Translations under genes and position numbers: made by a program
Shown here: positions 4,401-38,951 of the stretch, one piece after another
How the letters are laid out: each line of letters opens with the position of its first letter
How positions within the stretch are numbered: the stretch's first letter is position 1
The notes under the pieces: model-generated
Database searches by the model: none
What the model was told of the DNA's origin: nothing
Seen by the model: the letters and a program-made list of their open reading frames with translations, nothing else
Source of the DNA: a virus
Virus record (IMG/VR): IMGVR_UViG_3300007511_000003
Span: 1 to 64,000 of that record
Reading direction: 5' to 3' (one strand)
DNA: 64,000 bases

Positions 4401-4486
4401 ATAACGCCGACAACATCACCATCACATTGACCGAATCACGTAAGGTCAAGGTAATGGTCCAGAAGATGGAAAACATCCCGTCGTAA
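1433..4486 (+). CDS. Large repetitive tail fibre protein
   Basis: 1017 residues. N-terminal about 80 residues (GRWWFNTTLKEFMFS) resemble the attachment end of many phage fibres. The body is built of degenerate helical and beta repeats: units such as AMGAMMDANGDYVAH plus SNYLGGNSNVAEDLTDLD, and later AIGANVSDGNYILAANTVQ plus ANIAALD. Residues about 365-520 form the common fibre module with VADDRVLLFGQTDPIENGLY. The last about 75 residues (YSLAHNLNTSFPQITVLVQD) are a small beta domain also recognisable near the N-terminus of the next fibre protein. Role: host recognition or shaft. Start chosen by AGGAGAG upstream. Confidence 0.9.
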   Translation: MSVEYKKMHGLEMADASHIKNAVVESFASNPTPTVAGRWWFNTTLKEFMFSGLDGGGGVITEQVHSKADFDTWVALLAATATGGPLVGYSGQVGSNGQFSTSAAQLDSTLDTITLAIDADRQEEVDWRAILAATTATNGTNKVGYQGHAGSNGNLTVSTVSLKSSLDQIIDAIDQTQQDIIDNASSGGQGLSDLQAELDVTQNALGTMINVDGTFNTTALDGGNYMDASTDVASAALALDTQIKVNADGLAQEIIDRGAADDNIQAELDATQASMGAMMDANGDYVAHVGSNYLGSNSDVAEDLTDLDSQLKTVTDGLAQELIDRAAQDALLLPLAGGTMSGGIAMGSQTISNMANPSDAQDAATKIYVDNLVTGITAKYSVRYAVSSNVADLGAFTVEQDGVTGVADDRVLLFGQTDPIENGLYIVGTVTTGSAALTRADDFDGTPDNEVPPGAHVFVSEGTLNGNNGYSVTSSGSLAQQNHDVGTDDITFTQSSGAGQIIAGNGLSKNGNELYINFGAGIEMRPNDEVGVDVRATGGVFCTVDGTAQSDDAGAELAIKIDTTDATHGATLSTSASGARVAQAVIDLINTNESGLAQEITDRGNADTAIQAELDDTQAAMGAMMDANGDYVAHIGSNYLGGNSNVAEDLTDLDTQVKTNTDGLAQEVTDRGDADTALQAELDATQAAMGAMMNASGNYVAHTGKNYINGNADVASDLIDLDAAIGANVSDGNYILAANTVQANIAALDAELGSDADGNYTAASNTRAANLAALDTAIGANLANGNYVLASNKVQANITALDTAIGANVGDGDYILAANKVQQNITALDVALAALASQQAGDNSALQTEVDNIETAGGAMINTDGTFNNTALNGSNWMGSATTVQGALEALDTEVGANLSDGSYVLAANTVNANLTALDTGLDTEVTNRTNADTAIRADVNAQKYTYEATSAATSYSLAHNLNTSFPQITVLVQDEDLLYYNHGVLVRIDNADNITITLTESRKVKVMVQKMENIPS

Positions 4487-4503
4487 GCTGATTGTTTCAC
4501 AAC

Positions 4504-4527
4504 GGGGGCCATCGTAAGGTGGCCCCC
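4504..4527 (+). other. Stable inverted repeat after the fibre gene
   Basis: GGGGGCCA (4504-4511) pairs with TGGCCCCC (4520-4527) around an 8-base loop. No T tract follows, so it is either a weak or Rho-independent-like terminator remnant or an mRNA-stabilising hairpin. It ends 19 bases before the next start codon and could also limit downstream translation. Confidence 0.5.
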
Positions 4528-4546
4528 ACCCAAATAGGATCGCTGA

Positions 4547-4750
4547 ATGTTACAAACGCTTGAAAACGTCAACCTAGACCACGTAACCTCCATTGAGGAC
4601 ACGATAGGCCTAGTTATATCCTGTTTCGACGAGATGGAGCGGGAAGCAGCAAAGGGCCTTTTTATGTCCAGGCGCAGACGTTTGCAAGAAGCCATCCAAG
4701 AAGTAGACAAGGTGTATGCTCGGATGGATGCCCTTGTTATAGGGATTTGA
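4547..4750 (+). CDS. Small helical hypothetical protein
   Basis: 67 residues, predicted mostly alpha-helical (LDHVTSIEDTIGLVISCFDE, then a basic helix with SRRRRLQEA). No recognised domain. It follows the hairpin at 4504-4527 and overlaps the next gene at the TGA/TTGAG junction. Placed between two giant fibre genes, so it may be a fibre-assembly factor, but this is only positional. Confidence 0.6.
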   Translation: MLQTLENVNLDHVTSIEDTIGLVISCFDEMEREAAKGLFMSRRRRLQEAIQEVDKVYARMDALVIGI

Positions 4751-4752
4751 GT

Positions 4753-4971
4753 ATGGAGACGCCTGAAAAACAGGTTGGTGTGTGGCTGGGAATGTGTAGA
4801 CGTAACCTTAGGAACTTTCAGGTAGAACATCCTGAAATGTCACCTGGGGACAAGCTCCAGTTTATCCAAGAACAACGTCGCCTGCTTAAATCCCTTGAGG
4901 ATGTCTTGAACAGGAAAGCGTTCGTAACAGGAGTAGATCCTAGTAAATTTGACCATTCAGCCCAACGATAG
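4753..4971 (+). CDS. Small hypothetical protein between fibre genes
   Basis: 72 residues from ATG 4753; an in-frame TTG at 4747 would add two residues and overlap the upstream stop. The sequence (VWLGMCRRNLRNFQVEHP, then LQFIQEQRRLLKSLEDVLNR) suggests two amphipathic helices. No family recognised. A further 17-codon frame (4984-5037, start MRITAPSAPP) lies between this gene and the next fibre gene and overlaps its start codon; it is too short to call. Confidence 0.55.
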   Translation: METPEKQVGVWLGMCRRNLRNFQVEHPEMSPGDKLQFIQEQRRLLKSLEDVLNRKAFVTGVDPSKFDHSAQR

Positions 4972-24815: not shown

Positions 24816-25838
24816 ATGTCGGTAGAAGGTGTGTTCATAGGAGACCTCCATCTGGATGGCCTCCGTAAGTTGTTCCCTGACAATCATTTGGACCTACAAA
24901 TGGCAGAGTTCCGCAAACCACTGAGGTATGCGGTTGAACTCGGTCTCAACTTTGTTATCCTTGGTGGGGACATTTCCCACAATACTAGGCTTTCATACGA
25001 AGCCCAAATGGCGTTCCTTGAGGTCCTCCACGAGTACGATGGAACGTTAGACATCCATGTTATCCTGGGTAACCATGACGTTCGGAACAAAGACCTCCAC
25101 AGCCTACAACCACTTGTACAATTATGCAGGATGGAGAAATTTCGTACCATCTACATTTATGACCGTCCTAACCGTATCCAGTTGGATGGAACGGTCATTA
25201 ACTTTCTTCCTTTTCCCTATGACTGTCCTCCTTTTTCCTTGGGACCCACGGTTAATATTGGGCACTTAGAAACAACAGGTGCCCGCCGAGATAATGGCCA
25301 ACGGATTACCAAGGGTTGGCGTCCTACGAGAGACCAAGACATCTGGTTAATGGGGCACCTCCATCTCAAGCAAAAGACGGGTAATGTGTGGTACCCCGGC
25401 ACGCTCTACCAGATGAACTTTGGGGAACCCTTACCCAAGGGATGGATGCACTTTATTCTGGATACACGTAATAACCAGATTGACGCTGACATAACGTGGA
25501 TCCAGAACGAACCAGCGTTTCGCCTAGTTAACTTGTCCATCGAGGTAGAGGCAGACCTAGATAAAATTGAGTCCAATCCATTACACCGATACAAGCTATG
25601 GTTGAAGAGTGGTGTAGTATTACCTCCTGGCTTCCTGACAGCCCATCCAAACGTCTACAACGTTGTTGGGTACAAACATCGGCAAGAACTCTTATCCCTT
25701 GAGGATACGGCCGTAGATGGTCCGCAATGGGATCTCCTGACAGGGCTGGATGTTTTCCTGAAGGATAAGGGAGCTACACGGTCCCAAATTCGTCGGGGAC
25801 AACAATTAATAGAAAGCTTCTTAAAGGACGCGACATGA
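24816..25838 (+). CDS. gp47/SbcD-like nuclease (calcineurin-type phosphoesterase)
   Basis: 340 residues. Metallophosphoesterase motifs: GDLHLDG at 9-15, GGDISHN near 50-56, GNHDVR at 85-90 and GHLHLKQ near 175. This is the Mre11/SbcD fold. With the gp46-like ATPase at 29236 it should form the recombination exonuclease that resects DNA ends and, in T4-type phages, degrades host DNA. Unusually, the two subunit genes are separated by about 3.4 kb of clamp-loader and small membrane genes. Confidence 0.85.
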   Translation: MSVEGVFIGDLHLDGLRKLFPDNHLDLQMAEFRKPLRYAVELGLNFVILGGDISHNTRLSYEAQMAFLEVLHEYDGTLDIHVILGNHDVRNKDLHSLQPLVQLCRMEKFRTIYIYDRPNRIQLDGTVINFLPFPYDCPPFSLGPTVNIGHLETTGARRDNGQRITKGWRPTRDQDIWLMGHLHLKQKTGNVWYPGTLYQMNFGEPLPKGWMHFILDTRNNQIDADITWIQNEPAFRLVNLSIEVEADLDKIESNPLHRYKLWLKSGVVLPPGFLTAHPNVYNVVGYKHRQELLSLEDTAVDGPQWDLLTGLDVFLKDKGATRSQIRRGQQLIESFLKDAT

Positions 25839-26689
25839 CTGCCAATACTGCCGTTGGATTTACTGTCCAACACATGGAACTCCAAGATGAGGTAGAGGTA
25901 CTTGAGATTGAGTGCCAGCAACTGGAGACCAAGAGAGCCGAGTTTCAAGGGATGATGGACGATCTTGATGGTTGGTTGCAAGCAGAGCTGTCAGAAGAGG
26001 ATGAGATGATAACTCACCTTGAAACCGCCTGCCGTGATCTCTTGGACCAACATCGTAAATTACAGGAGCGACACAACCAAGAGGAACCTAACAAACCACG
26101 GGGGCCAAACTTCGAAACCAATTTTGAAAAGCGGCAGGAAAAGCAAAAGGTTAAACCAAGCTCAGAAGCCAAAAGGTTGTTCCGCCGCATTAGCCTGTTG
26201 TGCCACCCTGATAAAACGCCGGGTAAAACCTGGCTCCACGAATTTTTTAAGATGGCGTCAGAGGCCTACGAGAACAACAACGTCAAAGCTCTGTTGGATA
26301 TATGGGATGGGCTGGTAAAACTAGGGCGGGGTAAGAAAAAAGGTACAGAGGTGAACCTTCCGGACCGTCCAGCCTATGACAGGTTGGTGGCCAGACTCCG
26401 AAAAAGGCACGGCATCTTACTAGGCCGTATCCAAGAATTGCGGGCGGAGATAAATACCCTAGAGAATTCCGAGGGGCACAACAACTGGAAGTTGTGGCAA
26501 ACCCCTGTAGGGAGAGCACACGTCATTGAAAACACACGTGCCCAACTTATAGCCAAGTACCAAACGTTCCAAAAACAGATGGAACGCATCCAAGGGGATA
26601 TAGAGCGGATGAGGAATCCTGAAAAAGTGAACGTCACCTTTGGTCATGAAGGTACCACAGTTAACTGGGGACAATTCTGGAAACTGTAA
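25835..26689 (+). CDS. J-domain protein with coiled coils
   Basis: 284 residues, ATGA overlap with the gp47-like gene. Residues about 10-90 are coiled coil. A J-domain follows: EAKRLFRRISLLCHPDKTPG with the HPD motif near 124-126, and LHEFFKMASEAYENNN. The C-terminal half is again coiled coil. The HPD motif predicts stimulation of host DnaK. Phage J-proteins may help replication-complex remodelling. The stop TAA is part of a TGTAAATT motif that precedes the clamp-loader gene. Confidence 0.8.
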   Translation: MTANTAVGFTVQHMELQDEVEVLEIECQQLETKRAEFQGMMDDLDGWLQAELSEEDEMITHLETACRDLLDQHRKLQERHNQEEPNKPRGPNFETNFEKRQEKQKVKPSSEAKRLFRRISLLCHPDKTPGKTWLHEFFKMASEAYENNNVKALLDIWDGLVKLGRGKKKGTEVNLPDRPAYDRLVARLRKRHGILLGRIQELRAEINTLENSEGHNNWKLWQTPVGRAHVIENTRAQLIAKYQTFQKQMERIQGDIERMRNPEKVNVTFGHEGTTVNWGQFWKL

Positions 26690-26728: not shown

Positions 26729-27409
26729 ATGCCACCAGTAAAAGGATGGGCCCAGAAGTACAGGCCCCAAAAGTTAAGCCAAGTCGCAGGTCAAAAGTCT
26801 ATTGTTACCACGTTTCGGGGTAACATTGAAAAGGGTGAGATTCCCAGCGCCTACCTTCTGACAGGTCCAAGTGGATGTGGTAAAACCACCATCGGTCGGT
26901 TGATCGCCAAATACCTGAACTGTACAGAGATGACAGGGTGTGGTAAATGTGATTCCTGCGTCGCCTTACAGGAAGGCCGCCATCCTGATATCGAAGAGTT
27001 CAACATGGCAGACAGCCGGAAGATCGAGGACGTTCGTAACTTAATCGCCCGCAGTAGATTTATGTCCACCCATCGCCTCCGTGTCTTTATCCTTGACGAA
27101 TGTTTCCCTCCAGACGCGGAGGTAGAGGTGGCCCCTGATCAGTGGGCCACCATCGAGGATATTTGTCAAAATCCTGATAGATACCCAGAGGTGTTATCCT
27201 ATGATACAAAGGTAGGTAGGATAGAGGCCCAACCTGTAATTAGCAGGACACCAAAGGAAGCCAAGCCCGATCAAATGGTACGTGTCGATCTTGAGGATGG
27301 ATCCCATCAAGACTGCACGGATACACATAAGTGGTGGTCTGTCACGCGTGGACGTATGGTAGAAGCCCAAGAGCTTTTAGAGGGGGAGGAACTTTTGGTT
27401 CGCGATTAG
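26729..27409 (+). CDS. Clamp-loader ATPase (DnaX-like), N-terminal extein plus N-half of a split intein
   Basis: 226 residues. Residues 1-124 are the start of a DnaX gamma/tau-like AAA+ clamp loader: WAQKYRPQKLSQVAGQ, Walker A GPSGCGKTT, a zinc site CGKCDSC, and the beginning of Walker B, VFILDE. Cys125 (codon 27101-27103) starts an intein: block A CFPPDAEVEV and block B with the TxxH motif (CTDTHKWW). The frame ends EELLVRD at TAG 27407-27409 after 102 intein residues. The other half is encoded at 27636. Start set by GGAGCCGA at 26718-26725. Confidence 0.9.
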   Translation: MPPVKGWAQKYRPQKLSQVAGQKSIVTTFRGNIEKGEIPSAYLLTGPSGCGKTTIGRLIAKYLNCTEMTGCGKCDSCVALQEGRHPDIEEFNMADSRKIEDVRNLIARSRFMSTHRLRVFILDECFPPDAEVEVAPDQWATIEDICQNPDRYPEVLSYDTKVGRIEAQPVISRTPKEAKPDQMVRVDLEDGSHQDCTDTHKWWSVTRGRMVEAQELLEGEELLVRD

Positions 27410-27610
27410 ACTCCCGCTGTAAGTAAGGCCTTGTTTAAAATCGGTTTCCCAAATGTATACCACATTGTAACCTGCCAAGACTAGCCGTAATAACCTGTCC
27501 ATAGTTTTGCGGTATAGTGTTTTGGCAGTTACTTTGCGGTTAAATGGGTGGCACTTATGGTCAGGCTTGAATTTGAAAGGGGACCCGTGGTAATGATTCT
27601 CCGATGTAAC
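27377..27610 (-). pseudogene. C-terminal remnant of a Vsr-like homing endonuclease, antisense in the intein gap
   Basis: On the minus strand a frame without a start codon is open from 27610 to TAA at 27379-27377 (77 residues): NHYHGSPFKFKPDHKCHPFN, then TAKTLYRKTMDRLLRL and LAGYNVVYIWETDF. The pattern HG(S/D)P...KCHPFN...T..LY.KT...E/R..L...GYNVV.IWE is that of Vsr-like (EDxHD) homing endonucleases reported between halves of fractured split-intein genes. The N-terminal catalytic half is missing. It overlaps the last 33 bases of the N-half gene on the other strand. Confidence 0.75.
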
Positions 27611-27635
27611 TTATCTAAATTAGTGAGAGGAATTT

Positions 27636-28553
27636 ATGAAAACTGTTAAAGTCAAAAAAGTCACGCGGTTGGGTAATCCGTGTCAACGCGTATATGATAT
27701 CGGTGTCGCTAAGAACCATAATTTTTTCATTCGACCAAAAGGCTCCACAAATAGCGTCCTGGTATCAAATTGCCACCAGTTAACGCCTCAGGCAGAGCAA
27801 GCCCTCTTGAAACCGCTGGAGGATCCTCCAAGTCACGTCCTATGGATTCTTGGCACCACAAACCCAGAGAAGTTGGCGGCTGCCATCAAGGGGCGTTGTC
27901 ACCATTTACCTGTGAAACCTTTAGGGCACCAGTCCATTATTCGACGCCTCCAACAGATTGCCAAACGAGAACGTGTTACTGGCCTCGAGGAACCTCACTT
28001 TAAGGCCATGGCGAATCTGTCAGGTGGTCAGATGCGTGACGCCATTGGTATCTTGGAAAATACCAGTTCCTTCATTGCAGGGCTCGGCACAGATGTTGAA
28101 CCTGAAGCTCTGTCCAAGATTATCGAAGACCAAGCCATCCAAACGGTTGACAGTGTTTTGGATAACATTGCAAGCGCCATCTTGGTAGGTCTGTACACGA
28201 ACAGTACCCGCATAGTGTGCAGAGAGATAGCCAAGACTACGGAGTTCGTGCCCCTCATGCAAAAATTAATGGACCTCAACCAATACATGGTGGACAGGGC
28301 CACGCTCCATTTTGATAGCAGGGGTCAACACCCAGCGGTGTTTGCCAGTGTATCCCGGAAGAACCTGCACAGGGCGATGTTAAAGCGGGAGTTCGACATC
28401 AAGAGGAACCTCGGTCTATTACTACGTGTCCATAATTTAATATTGGATGCTCGGGCTGAGATGATGACCTTTGTAACACCTGAAAGGTCAATGCTGGTTG
28501 CTCGGCTTGGGCGTATGTCAGGTATCCACCGACAACGTTCAAGGAGTAAGTAA
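27636..28553 (+). CDS. C-half of the split intein plus C-terminal part of the clamp-loader ATPase
   Basis: 305 residues from ATG 27636 with GAGAGGA upstream. Residues 1-45 are a C-intein: block F CQRVYDIGVAKNHNFFI and block G NSVLVSN, ending with Asn45. The next residue, Cys46 (27771-27773), restores the clamp-loader sequence CHQLTPQAEQALLKPLED, then GTTNPEKL (sensor 1) and the lid and collar domains. Trans-splicing would yield a 384-residue ATPase with Walker B DECH. Without splicing neither half is functional, so replication should depend on it. Confidence 0.9.
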   Translation: MKTVKVKKVTRLGNPCQRVYDIGVAKNHNFFIRPKGSTNSVLVSNCHQLTPQAEQALLKPLEDPPSHVLWILGTTNPEKLAAAIKGRCHHLPVKPLGHQSIIRRLQQIAKRERVTGLEEPHFKAMANLSGGQMRDAIGILENTSSFIAGLGTDVEPEALSKIIEDQAIQTVDSVLDNIASAILVGLYTNSTRIVCREIAKTTEFVPLMQKLMDLNQYMVDRATLHFDSRGQHPAVFASVSRKNLHRAMLKREFDIKRNLGLLLRVHNLILDARAEMMTFVTPERSMLVARLGRMSGIHRQRSRSK

Positions 28554-36552: not shown

Positions 36553-37078
36553 CACCTTCACGATTACACGAAAAATTGAAATTGATGCGGGTCATCGTGT
36601 CCAAACACATGGGTCCAAGTGCCGTAACATTCACGGTCATCGTTATACCGTCGAAGCCGTGTGTAAAGGGTTCCTTTACTTGGAAGGGGAACAAACGGAC
36701 ATGGTGGTGGATTTTGGGTTCTTGAAGACCTGCATGATGGATATTATTGATGTAGGGTGTGATCATGGTTTTATTCTGTCCATCCAAGATCAGCAGCTTT
36801 GTCCGGTATTCATCCATGACTTTGGCCGACACGTCTCTGCCATACAGAAAGCGTGTGATGAGAAGGGGTATTGGAATTCGCAAGAAAGTGACGTTGAGAC
36901 TCTCCAAGGTACCAAGATTTATGTGGTACAGGGCATTCCAACCGCAGAGGTCTTGGCACAACACTGGTACCAACGTCTCAAAGAAGAGGTTCAAAAGAAA
37001 TTTGGAAAGGATATCCTACACCAAGTGCGGGTGTATGAAACACCTAACAGTTGTGCAGTATATCCCGGACACGTTTAG
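36545..37078 (+). CDS. queD: QueD-like 6-carboxytetrahydropterin synthase
   Basis: 177 residues from ATG 36545 (GGAGGACG upstream). Motifs: DAGHRVQTHGSKCRNIHGHR with the Cys and three zinc His residues, MVVDFGFLK, DHGFIL and C-terminal VRVYETPNSCAVYP with the catalytic Glu. QueD converts dihydroneopterin triphosphate to 6-carboxytetrahydropterin, the second step to preQ0. With DpdA at 16365 it supports 7-deazaguanine DNA modification. FolE, QueE and QueC are not in this window and would come from elsewhere in the phage or from the host. Confidence 0.85.
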   Translation: MGNTFTITRKIEIDAGHRVQTHGSKCRNIHGHRYTVEAVCKGFLYLEGEQTDMVVDFGFLKTCMMDIIDVGCDHGFILSIQDQQLCPVFIHDFGRHVSAIQKACDEKGYWNSQESDVETLQGTKIYVVQGIPTAEVLAQHWYQRLKEEVQKKFGKDILHQVRVYETPNSCAVYPGHV

Positions 37079-38243
37079 GTTCCATGTGGTACCAGTTATG
37101 TGGTAACGGGAGTCGGCTACCAGCAGGGTCCATCACAAGGAGTTTAAATCGGAATCCAGCTTTTAAGCAGGCTTTCGCTTTGGCTTGAGTCATTTCCAAT
37201 CTGGACCTTCTACCACAGAAGGTCCATAAGGATTTGACTTCCACTAATATGTTACGTATAGGAATCCAAAGGTCTGGATAGTATTTCCTATTACGTCCAC
37301 CCAAATGGTAGGGAACCACAGGTAGATTATCATTGGCGCTCGTTTTTATATTTTCGGCAGGTATTTCTGTATTGGCCAAAATCCAAAGGATGGCTTGTGG
37401 TTCATACCCTTGGACTTGCACAAAGCGGTCTCCGAGTTTAAAATCCTTAGGTTGGAAAGCCTTTTGTCGTGCACATACCGGGCACCCTGAACCACGAATA
37501 ACCATGCTTGGTTCAGCTTTCCATGTGTGGTTTTTAACACATTGGTGTCGGATGGCTGAGTTCGCCCCAACATATTTTTCGAGAACTTTAATCGTATTAC
37601 CATGCATGTGTCTTACTTCCCGTAGGTATTGTTGGGGGTGTTTTCTTTTCCGTGATTGGGCACATGAGGGGCAACCACATCCAGAAGTTACTGATTGAGT
37701 TGATGCCGCCCATCGGTGATGACATAGATGGCATTTGTACCGAGATTTTTGTCGAGAACCCGGATTATACTCTAACACTTGGATAGTTGATCCATGGATC
37801 CTTCTTAGCTTTTTCTCGTAGGTAGTTAATGGTACCTTGGTTCCACGATGACGGTCCGCACAAATGGGACAATTGGTAGCTCTCAGTGCTCGGTAGGGAG
37901 AAGTCTCCCAATCGGTACTACACCTAAGGCATCGGTGTAATATAAAATGATTGGCTCCTCGGTATTGTTCCAAGCAAATTAAGTAACCTTGGTGCTTAGC
38001 TTTTAACTGTTCCAAGTAGTCCTCGTGGGTCCATGTTCGATTTCGTGTGTTGCAAGCAGGACAACCAGCACCTCTTAAAATAACGCCTGGTTTGGTGTAC
38101 CATTTATGGTTACACTCAAGGCATTGGTGTAGGATTTTAATTCTTCCTTTGACGTAGGATCCGAGGACTTTAATTTTATTTCCATGTGGTAGCTGTTTGA
38201 TCGCCTTTTTGTAGGTTTCTGTAGTATACTTAACACCGCGCAT
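37044..38243 (-). CDS. Free-standing homing endonuclease with four zinc-ribbon repeats and PD-(D/E)XK domain
   Basis: 399 residues from minus-strand ATG 38243-38241 (GGGAGA upstream). Four repeats of about 65-70 residues share H.C..C...W...P..V..G.GCP.C (for example ILHQCLECNHKWYTKPGV and GAGCPACN), similar to the zinc-ribbon repeats (DUF4379-like) found beside homing endonuclease domains. The C-terminal about 100 residues carry YYPDLWIP and ILVEVKS, a PD...ExK nuclease core. It ends inside the 3' end of queD on the other strand (35-base overlap). Probably a selfish gene inserted between queD and the OPRT gene. Confidence 0.75.
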   Translation of the reverse strand: MRGVKYTTETYKKAIKQLPHGNKIKVLGSYVKGRIKILHQCLECNHKWYTKPGVILRGAGCPACNTRNRTWTHEDYLEQLKAKHQGYLICLEQYRGANHFILHRCLRCSTDWETSPYRALRATNCPICADRHRGTKVPLTTYEKKLRRIHGSTIQVLEYNPGSRQKSRYKCHLCHHRWAASTQSVTSGCGCPSCAQSRKRKHPQQYLREVRHMHGNTIKVLEKYVGANSAIRHQCVKNHTWKAEPSMVIRGSGCPVCARQKAFQPKDFKLGDRFVQVQGYEPQAILWILANTEIPAENIKTSANDNLPVVPYHLGGRNRKYYPDLWIPIRNILVEVKSLWTFCGRRSRLEMTQAKAKACLKAGFRFKLLVMDPAGSRLPLPHNWYHMEPKRVRDILHNC

Positions 38244-38286
38244 CCTATTTCTCCCGTGTATAAAAAGGTTATCTATTAAATTAGTA

Positions 38287-38294
38287 TGTAAATA
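38287..38294 (+). promoter_or_regulatory. Phage promoter motif (TGTAAATA) before the OPRT gene
   Basis: TGTAAATA at 38287-38294, 25 bases before ATG 38319, in the 75-base gap between the divergent homing endonuclease and the orotate phosphoribosyltransferase gene. The gap is very AT-rich and also contains TATAAAAAGG at 38258-38267. Confidence 0.55.
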
Positions 38295-38318
38295 GACTTC
38301 AATAGGGAGGTAAACAAA

Positions 38319-38951
38319 ATGAACGACATTGATTGGGAACAAGAACTAGGGGCTGGAGGCGCCCTCTGGATCCATGACGGCAATGGGCCTCACGCCCTGC
38401 TTACATCTGGCAACCACAGTGATGGCTTCTTCAACGCCAGCCAGGTAATCAAACACCCGACCTTGGTTTTGGATGTTTGTCTCCACTGGAAGGACCTTAT
38501 GGCCTCCCATGACTTTCATTGGGTAATCGGGTCTGCCATGGGAGTAGTAACGTTAGCCCACCAAATGGCTTTAATCCTGGGAGGGTCTATTGGTGGAGAC
38601 GTGTATACAGGCTTTACCGAACCCATGAGGGATGATGACGGCGAGAAGCAAATGGTCCTTAAGAGGTTTACCTTGGAACCGGGCCAACAAGTGTTGGTAG
38701 TCGAGGATGTATTAACCACCGGTGACACCACACGGAAGACCATCCAGGCTATCAAGGTACAAGGAGCCAAGGTAACGATGGTAGCAGTTATACTCAACCG
38801 AAGTGGTCACCGACATATTAATGGCCTACCTATCGTGTCCTTACTTGATAAACAACTCCAGATTTGGCCTCCCCATATGTGCCCACTCTGTGCGGACGGT
38901 TCTGAAGCTGTCCGCCCAAAAGAAAACTGGGACCTGTTAACAGCGTCATGA
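38319..38951 (+). CDS. pyrE: Orotate phosphoribosyltransferase-like protein (copy 1)
   Basis: 210 residues. Type I PRTase: SGNHSDGFFNAS near 26-37 (orotate side), VIGSAMGVVTLAH, and the PRPP loop VLVVEDVLTTGDT near 126-138. A C-terminal CPLC pair (MCPLCADGSEAV) may bind zinc. It converts orotate and PRPP to OMP; the phage also has OMP decarboxylase at 61492. A second PyrE-like gene is at 51863. Confidence 0.8.
   Translation: MNDIDWEQELGAGGALWIHDGNGPHALLTSGNHSDGFFNASQVIKHPTLVLDVCLHWKDLMASHDFHWVIGSAMGVVTLAHQMALILGGSIGGDVYTGFTEPMRDDDGEKQMVLKRFTLEPGQQVLVVEDVLTTGDTTRKTIQAIKVQGAKVTMVAVILNRSGHRHINGLPIVSLLDKQLQIWPPHMCPLCADGSEAVRPKENWDLLTAS

What the first reader, a model, noticed from the sequence alone, without database searches (positions are those of the whole stretch)
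26729..28553. Naturally split intein inside the Walker B motif of a phage clamp-loader ATPase
Two adjacent genes encode halves of one DnaX-like ATPase. The first ends VFILDE then an intein N-half (block A CFPPDAEVEV, TxxH in CTDTHKWW, 102 residues, own stop). The second starts with a 45-residue C-half (VYDIGVAKNHNFFI, NSVLVSN) then Cys and the restored CHQLTPQAEQALL. The site lies within DE|CH of Walker B, so no active clamp loader exists without trans-splicing. Short C-halves and Cys +1 are typical of fast phage split inteins. Split inteins are known in phage gp41, NrdJ and IMPDH-type genes; I am not sure this exact host gene and site are described.
Basis: partly seen in the sequence, partly recalled or inferred. 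Interest (0 to 1): 0.92.

Follow-up and report, generated by a model that had tools for sequence, protein, structure and literature searches.

The report
Split intein breaks phage clamp-loader gene
A phage's DNA-clamp-loading enzyme is encoded as two separate genes whose products are predicted to stitch themselves together with a naturally split, self-removing protein segment; the remains of a DNA-cutting 'homing' gene between them, and a closely related cassette in an unrelated helicase gene of a relative, suggest this selfish cassette can move between different genes that share the same short motif.

Summary
ORF 26729-27409 is the first 124 residues of a DnaX-type clamp loader plus a 102-residue intein N-half; ORF 27636-28553 is a 45-residue C-half plus Cys+1 and the remaining 260 residues. 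Uninterrupted loaders of Vibrio phages GR7B and GR11A align straight across DE|CH, and an intein profile built with the window halves matches solved inteins (NrdJ-1, Spl DnaX; E about 1e-12).

Two corrections. The site is not new: cyanobacterial DnaX inteins sit at exactly DE|CH, and I found cis and split inteins there in other viral clamp loaders. The intein's closest relative is not a DnaX intein, though. It is the split intein at the Walker B motif of an unrelated gene, the UvsW-like helicase of GR11A (111 bits; next best 76).

The 226-bp gap holds an opposite-strand C-terminal remnant of a homing endonuclease. Its only match in 50,697 phage records is the endonuclease between those UvsW intein halves. 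GR11A's clamp loader and this phage's UvsW are uninterrupted.

Best reading: a trans-splicing clamp loader with a decayed fractured-gene cassette shared between non-homologous Walker B sites. New member of a known kind, with an unusual mobility signature. Splicing itself is inferred, not shown.

The parts
26729..27100 (+). N-extein: DnaX-type clamp loader residues 1-124 (Walker A GPSGCGKTT, CxxC zinc module, Walker B ...VFILDE)
   Evidence: TIGR02397 positions 4-126, E 1.7e-35; aligned to intact loaders of GR7B, GR11A, PhiXhv-12; E. coli clamp loader fold hit 1.7e-8
27101..27406 (+). Intein N-half, 102 aa: C1, block B TDTH; TAG stop at 27407-27409
   Evidence: 43% aligned identity to the GR11A UvsW split intein; profile hits to NrdJ-1 and Spl DnaX inteins; Npu DnaE fold hit; TxxH check
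27380..27601 (-). Remnant (open frame of about 74 codons, C-terminal part only) of an opposite-strand homing endonuclease gene, filling the gap between the two halves and overlapping the end of the N-half
   Evidence: 62 codons at 27407-27592 match residues 205-265 of the endonuclease inside GR11A UvsW (40% identity, E 2e-14); sole hit of 50,697 phage records (3e-9); stops just upstream
27636..27770 (+). Intein C-half, 45 aa, own ATG with AGAGG upstream, ends LVSN (penultimate Ser instead of the commoner His)
   Evidence: an SN ending occurs in 10 of 66 inteins compared
27771..28550 (+). C-extein: Cys+1, His and the rest of the clamp loader, 260 aa (TAA stop to 28553)
   Evidence: TIGR02397 positions 123-288, E 4.7e-26; alignment

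Best explanation
The two ORFs encode the halves of one DnaX-type AAA+ clamp-loader ATPase, each fused to one half of a naturally split class 1 (Cys1, Asn-terminal, Cys+1) intein. The halves associate and trans-splice between Walker B Glu124 and Cys+1 to give a 384-residue ATPase, the only clamp-loader ATPase found in the genome record. The locus is a decayed 'fractured gene': an IN / opposite-strand homing endonuclease / IC cassette whose endonuclease has lost all but its C-terminal part, leaving the split intein held in place because the host needs the spliced product. The cassette shares ancestry with the one at the Walker B site (DE|CH) of the non-homologous UvsW-like helicase of Vibrio phage GR11A, so at some time it moved between two different ATPase genes that share the local DE|CH sequence. 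Shown: gene anatomy, homologies, site, remnant. Inferred: trans-splicing, essentiality, homing, and the ectopic move (its direction is unknown).
For: Halves and junctions; intact homologues across the junction; intein profile and fold matches; single split copy of the loader and two intein pairs in the 168.9 kb record; same layout in two other contigs. Shared cassette: best intein match is GR11A UvsW, 111 bits against 76 for Yersinia phage UvsW and 54 for the phage clamp-loader cis intein L043; tree pairs window with GR11A UvsW at 100/92; grouping with cyanobacterial DnaX inteins rejected, AU p 0.028; endonuclease remnant matches only the GR11A UvsW endonuclease, in the same orientation and overlapping IN in the same way. 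Reciprocal empty sites: GR11A clamp loader uninterrupted; this phage's UvsW uninterrupted, with IIDE|VH; GR7B UvsW matched in one uninterrupted piece.
Against: No splicing, expression or essentiality data. Penultimate residue is Ser, not His (present in 10 of 66 compared inteins, but activity untested). The intein tree has only 128 columns: AU does not reject GR11A UvsW + Yersinia UvsW as a pair (p 0.38) or window + L043 (p 0.36), so the ectopic move rests mainly on pairwise score plus the endonuclease remnant. The endonuclease could in principle have colonised two related split inteins independently.
Confidence: 0.87

Rival explanations
1. Same split-intein locus, but inherited allelically: an old DnaX-site intein (as in cyanobacterial DnaX and phage L043) that split within the clamp-loader lineage; the UvsW resemblance is chance or shared antiquity.
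For: Cis inteins exist at the identical site in cyanobacterial DnaX and viral clamp loaders L043, L038; AU does not reject window + L043 (p 0.36).
Against: GR11A UvsW is the best match by a wide margin (111 v 54 bits); window + cyanobacterial DnaX rejected (p 0.028); the endonuclease remnant points to GR11A UvsW alone.
Confidence: 0.2
2. A broken cis intein (a stop plus deletion): the clamp loader is dead or being lost and the halves are pseudogene fragments.
For: Endonuclease remnant shows the locus has suffered deletion.
Against: Both halves are full, open, with their own start and ribosome-site-like sequence; all catalytic positions kept; the split lies at the canonical endonuclease site, as in other fractured genes; only loader in the record; related split inteins have an endonuclease gene on the opposite strand there, so the split most likely precedes the deletion.
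Confidence: 0.05
3. RNA-level joining (intron) or programmed frameshift/readthrough joins the halves, with no protein splicing.
For: Two adjacent genes for one protein.
Against: No Rfam hit, even at permissive threshold; stops in all forward frames of the gap; the extra residues are themselves a complete intein.
Confidence: 0.01
4. Two-subunit clamp loader that works non-covalently without splicing, the intein halves acting only as docking domains.
For: None direct; split-intein halves of other systems bind each other tightly (general knowledge).
Against: All splicing residues (C1, TxxH, N45, C+1) are conserved; the junction lies inside Walker B and the strand next to it.
Confidence: 0.02

Closest known systems
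Fractured genes with split inteins and a free-standing endonuclease in phages (Dassa et al. 2009, doi 10.1093/nar/gkp095; not held here, described from general knowledge and citing papers such as PMC6892783)
   Same: Conserved DNA-metabolism gene broken by a split intein, with an endonuclease gene between the halves; phage setting.
   Different: Here the endonuclease is only a C-terminal remnant; host is a DnaX-type clamp loader. Whether that paper's eight enzyme types include a clamp loader could not be checked.
Cyanobacterial DnaX inteins (Ssp/Spl DnaX; PDB 7cfv)
   Same: Same host gene family and exactly the same insertion site, VIDE|C...HN|CHML.
   Different: Cis, often with an internal insert of about 1 kb; cellular; not the nearest relatives of the window intein.
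Split intein in the UvsW-like helicase of Vibrio phage vB_VcorM_GR11A (GR11A_00006/00005/00004)
   Same: Nearest intein and the only endonuclease match; split at the same place, at Walker B DE|CH, with the endonuclease on the opposite strand overlapping IN.
   Different: Host gene is a non-homologous SF2 helicase; the endonuclease is full length (271 aa).
Split intein in viral gp44-type clamp loader (IMG/VR loci L077, L084, found here)
   Same: Clamp-loader ATPase split at the same Walker B position, LDE|CD.
   Different: gp44/RFC-type loader; 319-aa TnsA-like endonuclease ORF on the same strand; distant intein.
Mycobacteriophage TerL1-e intein at Walker B and non-allelic intein kinships (PMC5050341)
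   Same: Walker B insertion and evidence that inteins move between different ATPase genes.
   Different: Class 3 cis inteins in terminases, not split, no separate endonuclease gene.

Membership tests
Naturally split intein (class 1) | IN starting with Cys/Ser and containing TxxH, on its own ORF | tested here: met
   C125, TDTH, own stop
Naturally split intein (class 1) | IC ending in Asn followed by Cys/Ser/Thr +1, on its own ORF | tested here: met
   LVSN|C; penultimate Ser rather than His
Naturally split intein (class 1) | HINT-family homology | tested here: met
   profile hits 8ubs 4.3e-13, 7cfv 9.3e-13; fold hit to Npu DnaE 4qfq 3e-4 with low TM-score
Naturally split intein (class 1) | Exteins join to a contiguous homologous protein | tested here: met
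   intact loaders align across the junction
Naturally split intein (class 1) | Trans-splicing activity | not testable with these tools
   needs co-expression
Fractured gene (split intein + free-standing endonuclease gene) | Intact endonuclease ORF between the halves | tested here: not met
   only a 62-74 codon C-terminal remnant; so called here a decayed relic of one
DnaX-site intein alleles | Insertion at DE|CH of dnaX | tested here: met
   same site as 18 cyanobacterial loci
DnaX-site intein alleles | Closest kinship with other inteins of that site | tested here: not met
   nearest is GR11A UvsW; AU for L043 inconclusive
DnaX-type clamp loader ATPase | Walker A, zinc module, Walker B and AAA+ lid of DnaX in the spliced product | tested here: met
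   TIGR02397 both halves; PF13177, PF22608 weak; E. coli gamma fold

The most novel reading that the evidence does not exclude
A whole split-intein plus endonuclease cassette has moved between two non-homologous ATPase genes (SF2 helicase UvsW and AAA+ clamp loader) because both carry the same short Walker B sequence (GAYGARTGYCAY, DE|CH). Walker B would then be a recurrent 'platform' by which inteins jump between gene families, and the window locus would be a late stage in which the endonuclease has decayed.
Probability: 0.65. Interest if true: 0.65.

Novelty: new member of a known kind. Interest (0 to 1): 0.5.

Why it matters
Ectopic movement of inteins is held to be very rare because homing needs flanking homology, and earlier candidate cases showed no similarity between the flanking DNA (PMC1635734). 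Here the two sites share the DE|CH codons (10 of 12 core bases with GR11A UvsW), and two parts of the cassette, intein and endonuclease, tell the same story. It gives a testable model of how a split intein reaches a new gene, a relic showing that the split intein outlives its endonuclease, and a new candidate split intein (102 + 45 aa) for protein ligation tools.

Tried and rejected
DNA search of the locus against 50,697 phages: no match. Pfam and NCBIfam on the halves: too weak alone for the intein. Rfam for introns: none. Promoter/terminator scan: no excess over shuffles. PDB search for the GR11A endonuclease: no match. Search for the same endonuclease in viral contigs found only free-standing distant relatives, not between intein halves, besides this locus. 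Dassa 2009 full text is not held, so its list of host genes could not be checked. A joint fold of both intein halves was not attempted: a fused sequence would be an altered copy.

Full report
What is there. The window is bases 1-64000 of a 168.9 kb virus record. ORF 26729-27409 ends a DnaX-type clamp loader at VFILDE and continues as a 102-residue intein N-half; ORF 27636-28553 begins with a 45-residue C-half, then CHQLTPQAEQALLKPL and the rest of the loader. The two extein parts match consecutive stretches of the DnaX model. Intact loaders of Vibrio phages GR7B and GR11A and of Xanthomonas phage PhiXhv-12 align across the join without a gap. The neighbourhood is a replication/recombination module with SSB-like, UvsX-like, SbcD-like and SbcC-like genes; GR7B and GR11A have the same metallophosphoesterase - clamp loader - large hypothetical protein order.

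Is it an intein. Single halves score weakly in Pfam, but a four-sequence profile including the window halves hits solved inteins NrdJ-1 and Spl DnaX at about 1e-12 and some 40 further inteins or HINT proteins. An AlphaFold model of the N precursor (pLDDT 85) matches E. coli clamp-loader gamma and, for its C-terminal part, the N-half of Npu DnaE (the TM-score for the intein part is low because a lone half is modelled). Catalytic positions C1, TxxH, terminal Asn and Cys+1 are present. The Ser before the terminal Asn is shared by 10 of 66 compared inteins.

The site is known, the host is not unique. Cyanobacterial dnaX genes carry cis inteins at exactly the same position (VIDE|C...HN|CHML). In viral contigs I found cis inteins at this position in DnaX-like loaders L043 and L038, a RarA-like ATPase L066, and split inteins in gp44-type loaders L077/L084 with an endonuclease ORF between the halves. 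SF2 helicases carry cis or split inteins at the matching Walker B position (L005, L006, L042, L072, L078, L080, L092, L095). Walker B DE|C is thus a common intein site in phage ATPases of several families. A Walker B insertion was also reported for mycobacteriophage terminases (PMC5050341).

The gap is a relic. Comparing endonucleases of related loci with the 226-bp gap shows an opposite-strand open frame whose 62 codons match residues 205-265 of the 271-residue endonuclease lying between the UvsW intein halves of GR11A (E 2e-14 against the gap, 4e-11 against the window). Searched on its own against 50,697 phage records, the remnant hits only that gene. In both phages the endonuclease is on the opposite strand and its end overlaps the IN coding region. 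The first roughly 200 codons are gone here.

Kinship. By pairwise score the window intein is nearest to GR11A UvsW (111 bits), then Yersinia phage fHe-Yen9-02 UvsW (76), then this genome's own polymerase intein (64); the phage clamp-loader intein L043 scores 54. The tree pairs it with GR11A UvsW at 100/92, and a clade with cyanobacterial DnaX inteins is rejected at p 0.028. With only 128 columns the tree does not exclude L005+L006 or window+L043 pairings. GR11A's clamp loader and this phage's UvsW are both uninterrupted, the latter with Val instead of Cys at the site. I conclude that the cassette shares ancestry with one in a non-homologous gene; direction and route are unknown. Literature treats such ectopic moves as rare and notes no flank similarity in earlier candidates (PMC1635734), though non-allelic kinships are known (PMC5050341). 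Here the 12 core bases agree at 10 of 12 positions, largely because both genes encode DECH.

Second split gene. The same genome has its family A DNA polymerase split at GEF|CLDEN with a 381-aa endonuclease-like ORF on the opposite strand; GR11A's polymerase is intact across that point.

Limits. Everything about splicing and essentiality is inferred. The record may be incomplete, so a second loader cannot be excluded. The main prior-art paper could not be read. Novelty is judged as a new member of a known kind (phage split inteins/fractured genes), with an unusual mobility signature as the most interesting part.

Noticed in passing
G000:C1 about 87.1-90.3 kb (L002, L148; outside the window): Second fractured gene of the same phage: family A DNA polymerase split by a split intein at WDTIAGEF|CLDEN, with an opposite-strand DUF7487 homing-endonuclease-like ORF between the halves.
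   Followed up: partly
window 37044-38342 (-): 432-aa endonuclease-like ORF (PHROG HNH/endonuclease, DUF7487), apparently free-standing; a third DUF7487 match lies at 102.9 kb of the genome record.
   Followed up: no
L077:3384-5732, L084:2-2298: Viral gp44-type clamp loaders split by an intein at LDE|CD with a 319-aa ORF between the halves (TnsA-like match shown for L077); appear unreported as far as could be checked.
   Followed up: partly
L005:1976-6155 (Vibrio phage GR11A): UvsW-like helicase carries two inteins: a cis one after PPRSGK (Walker A) and a split one at Walker B; all parts are annotated as hypothetical or helicase fragments in GenBank.
   Followed up: partly
L038:3962-5464: Viral clamp loader with a 188-aa cis intein at DE|CH; another frame of the same stretch (4461-4796) reads as a possible nuclease C-terminus, perhaps an endonuclease remnant here too.
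   Followed up: no
window 25835-26689 (+): ORF with a weak DnaJ-domain match inserted between the SbcD-like gene and the clamp loader; in GR7B and GR11A the two genes are adjacent.
   Followed up: no
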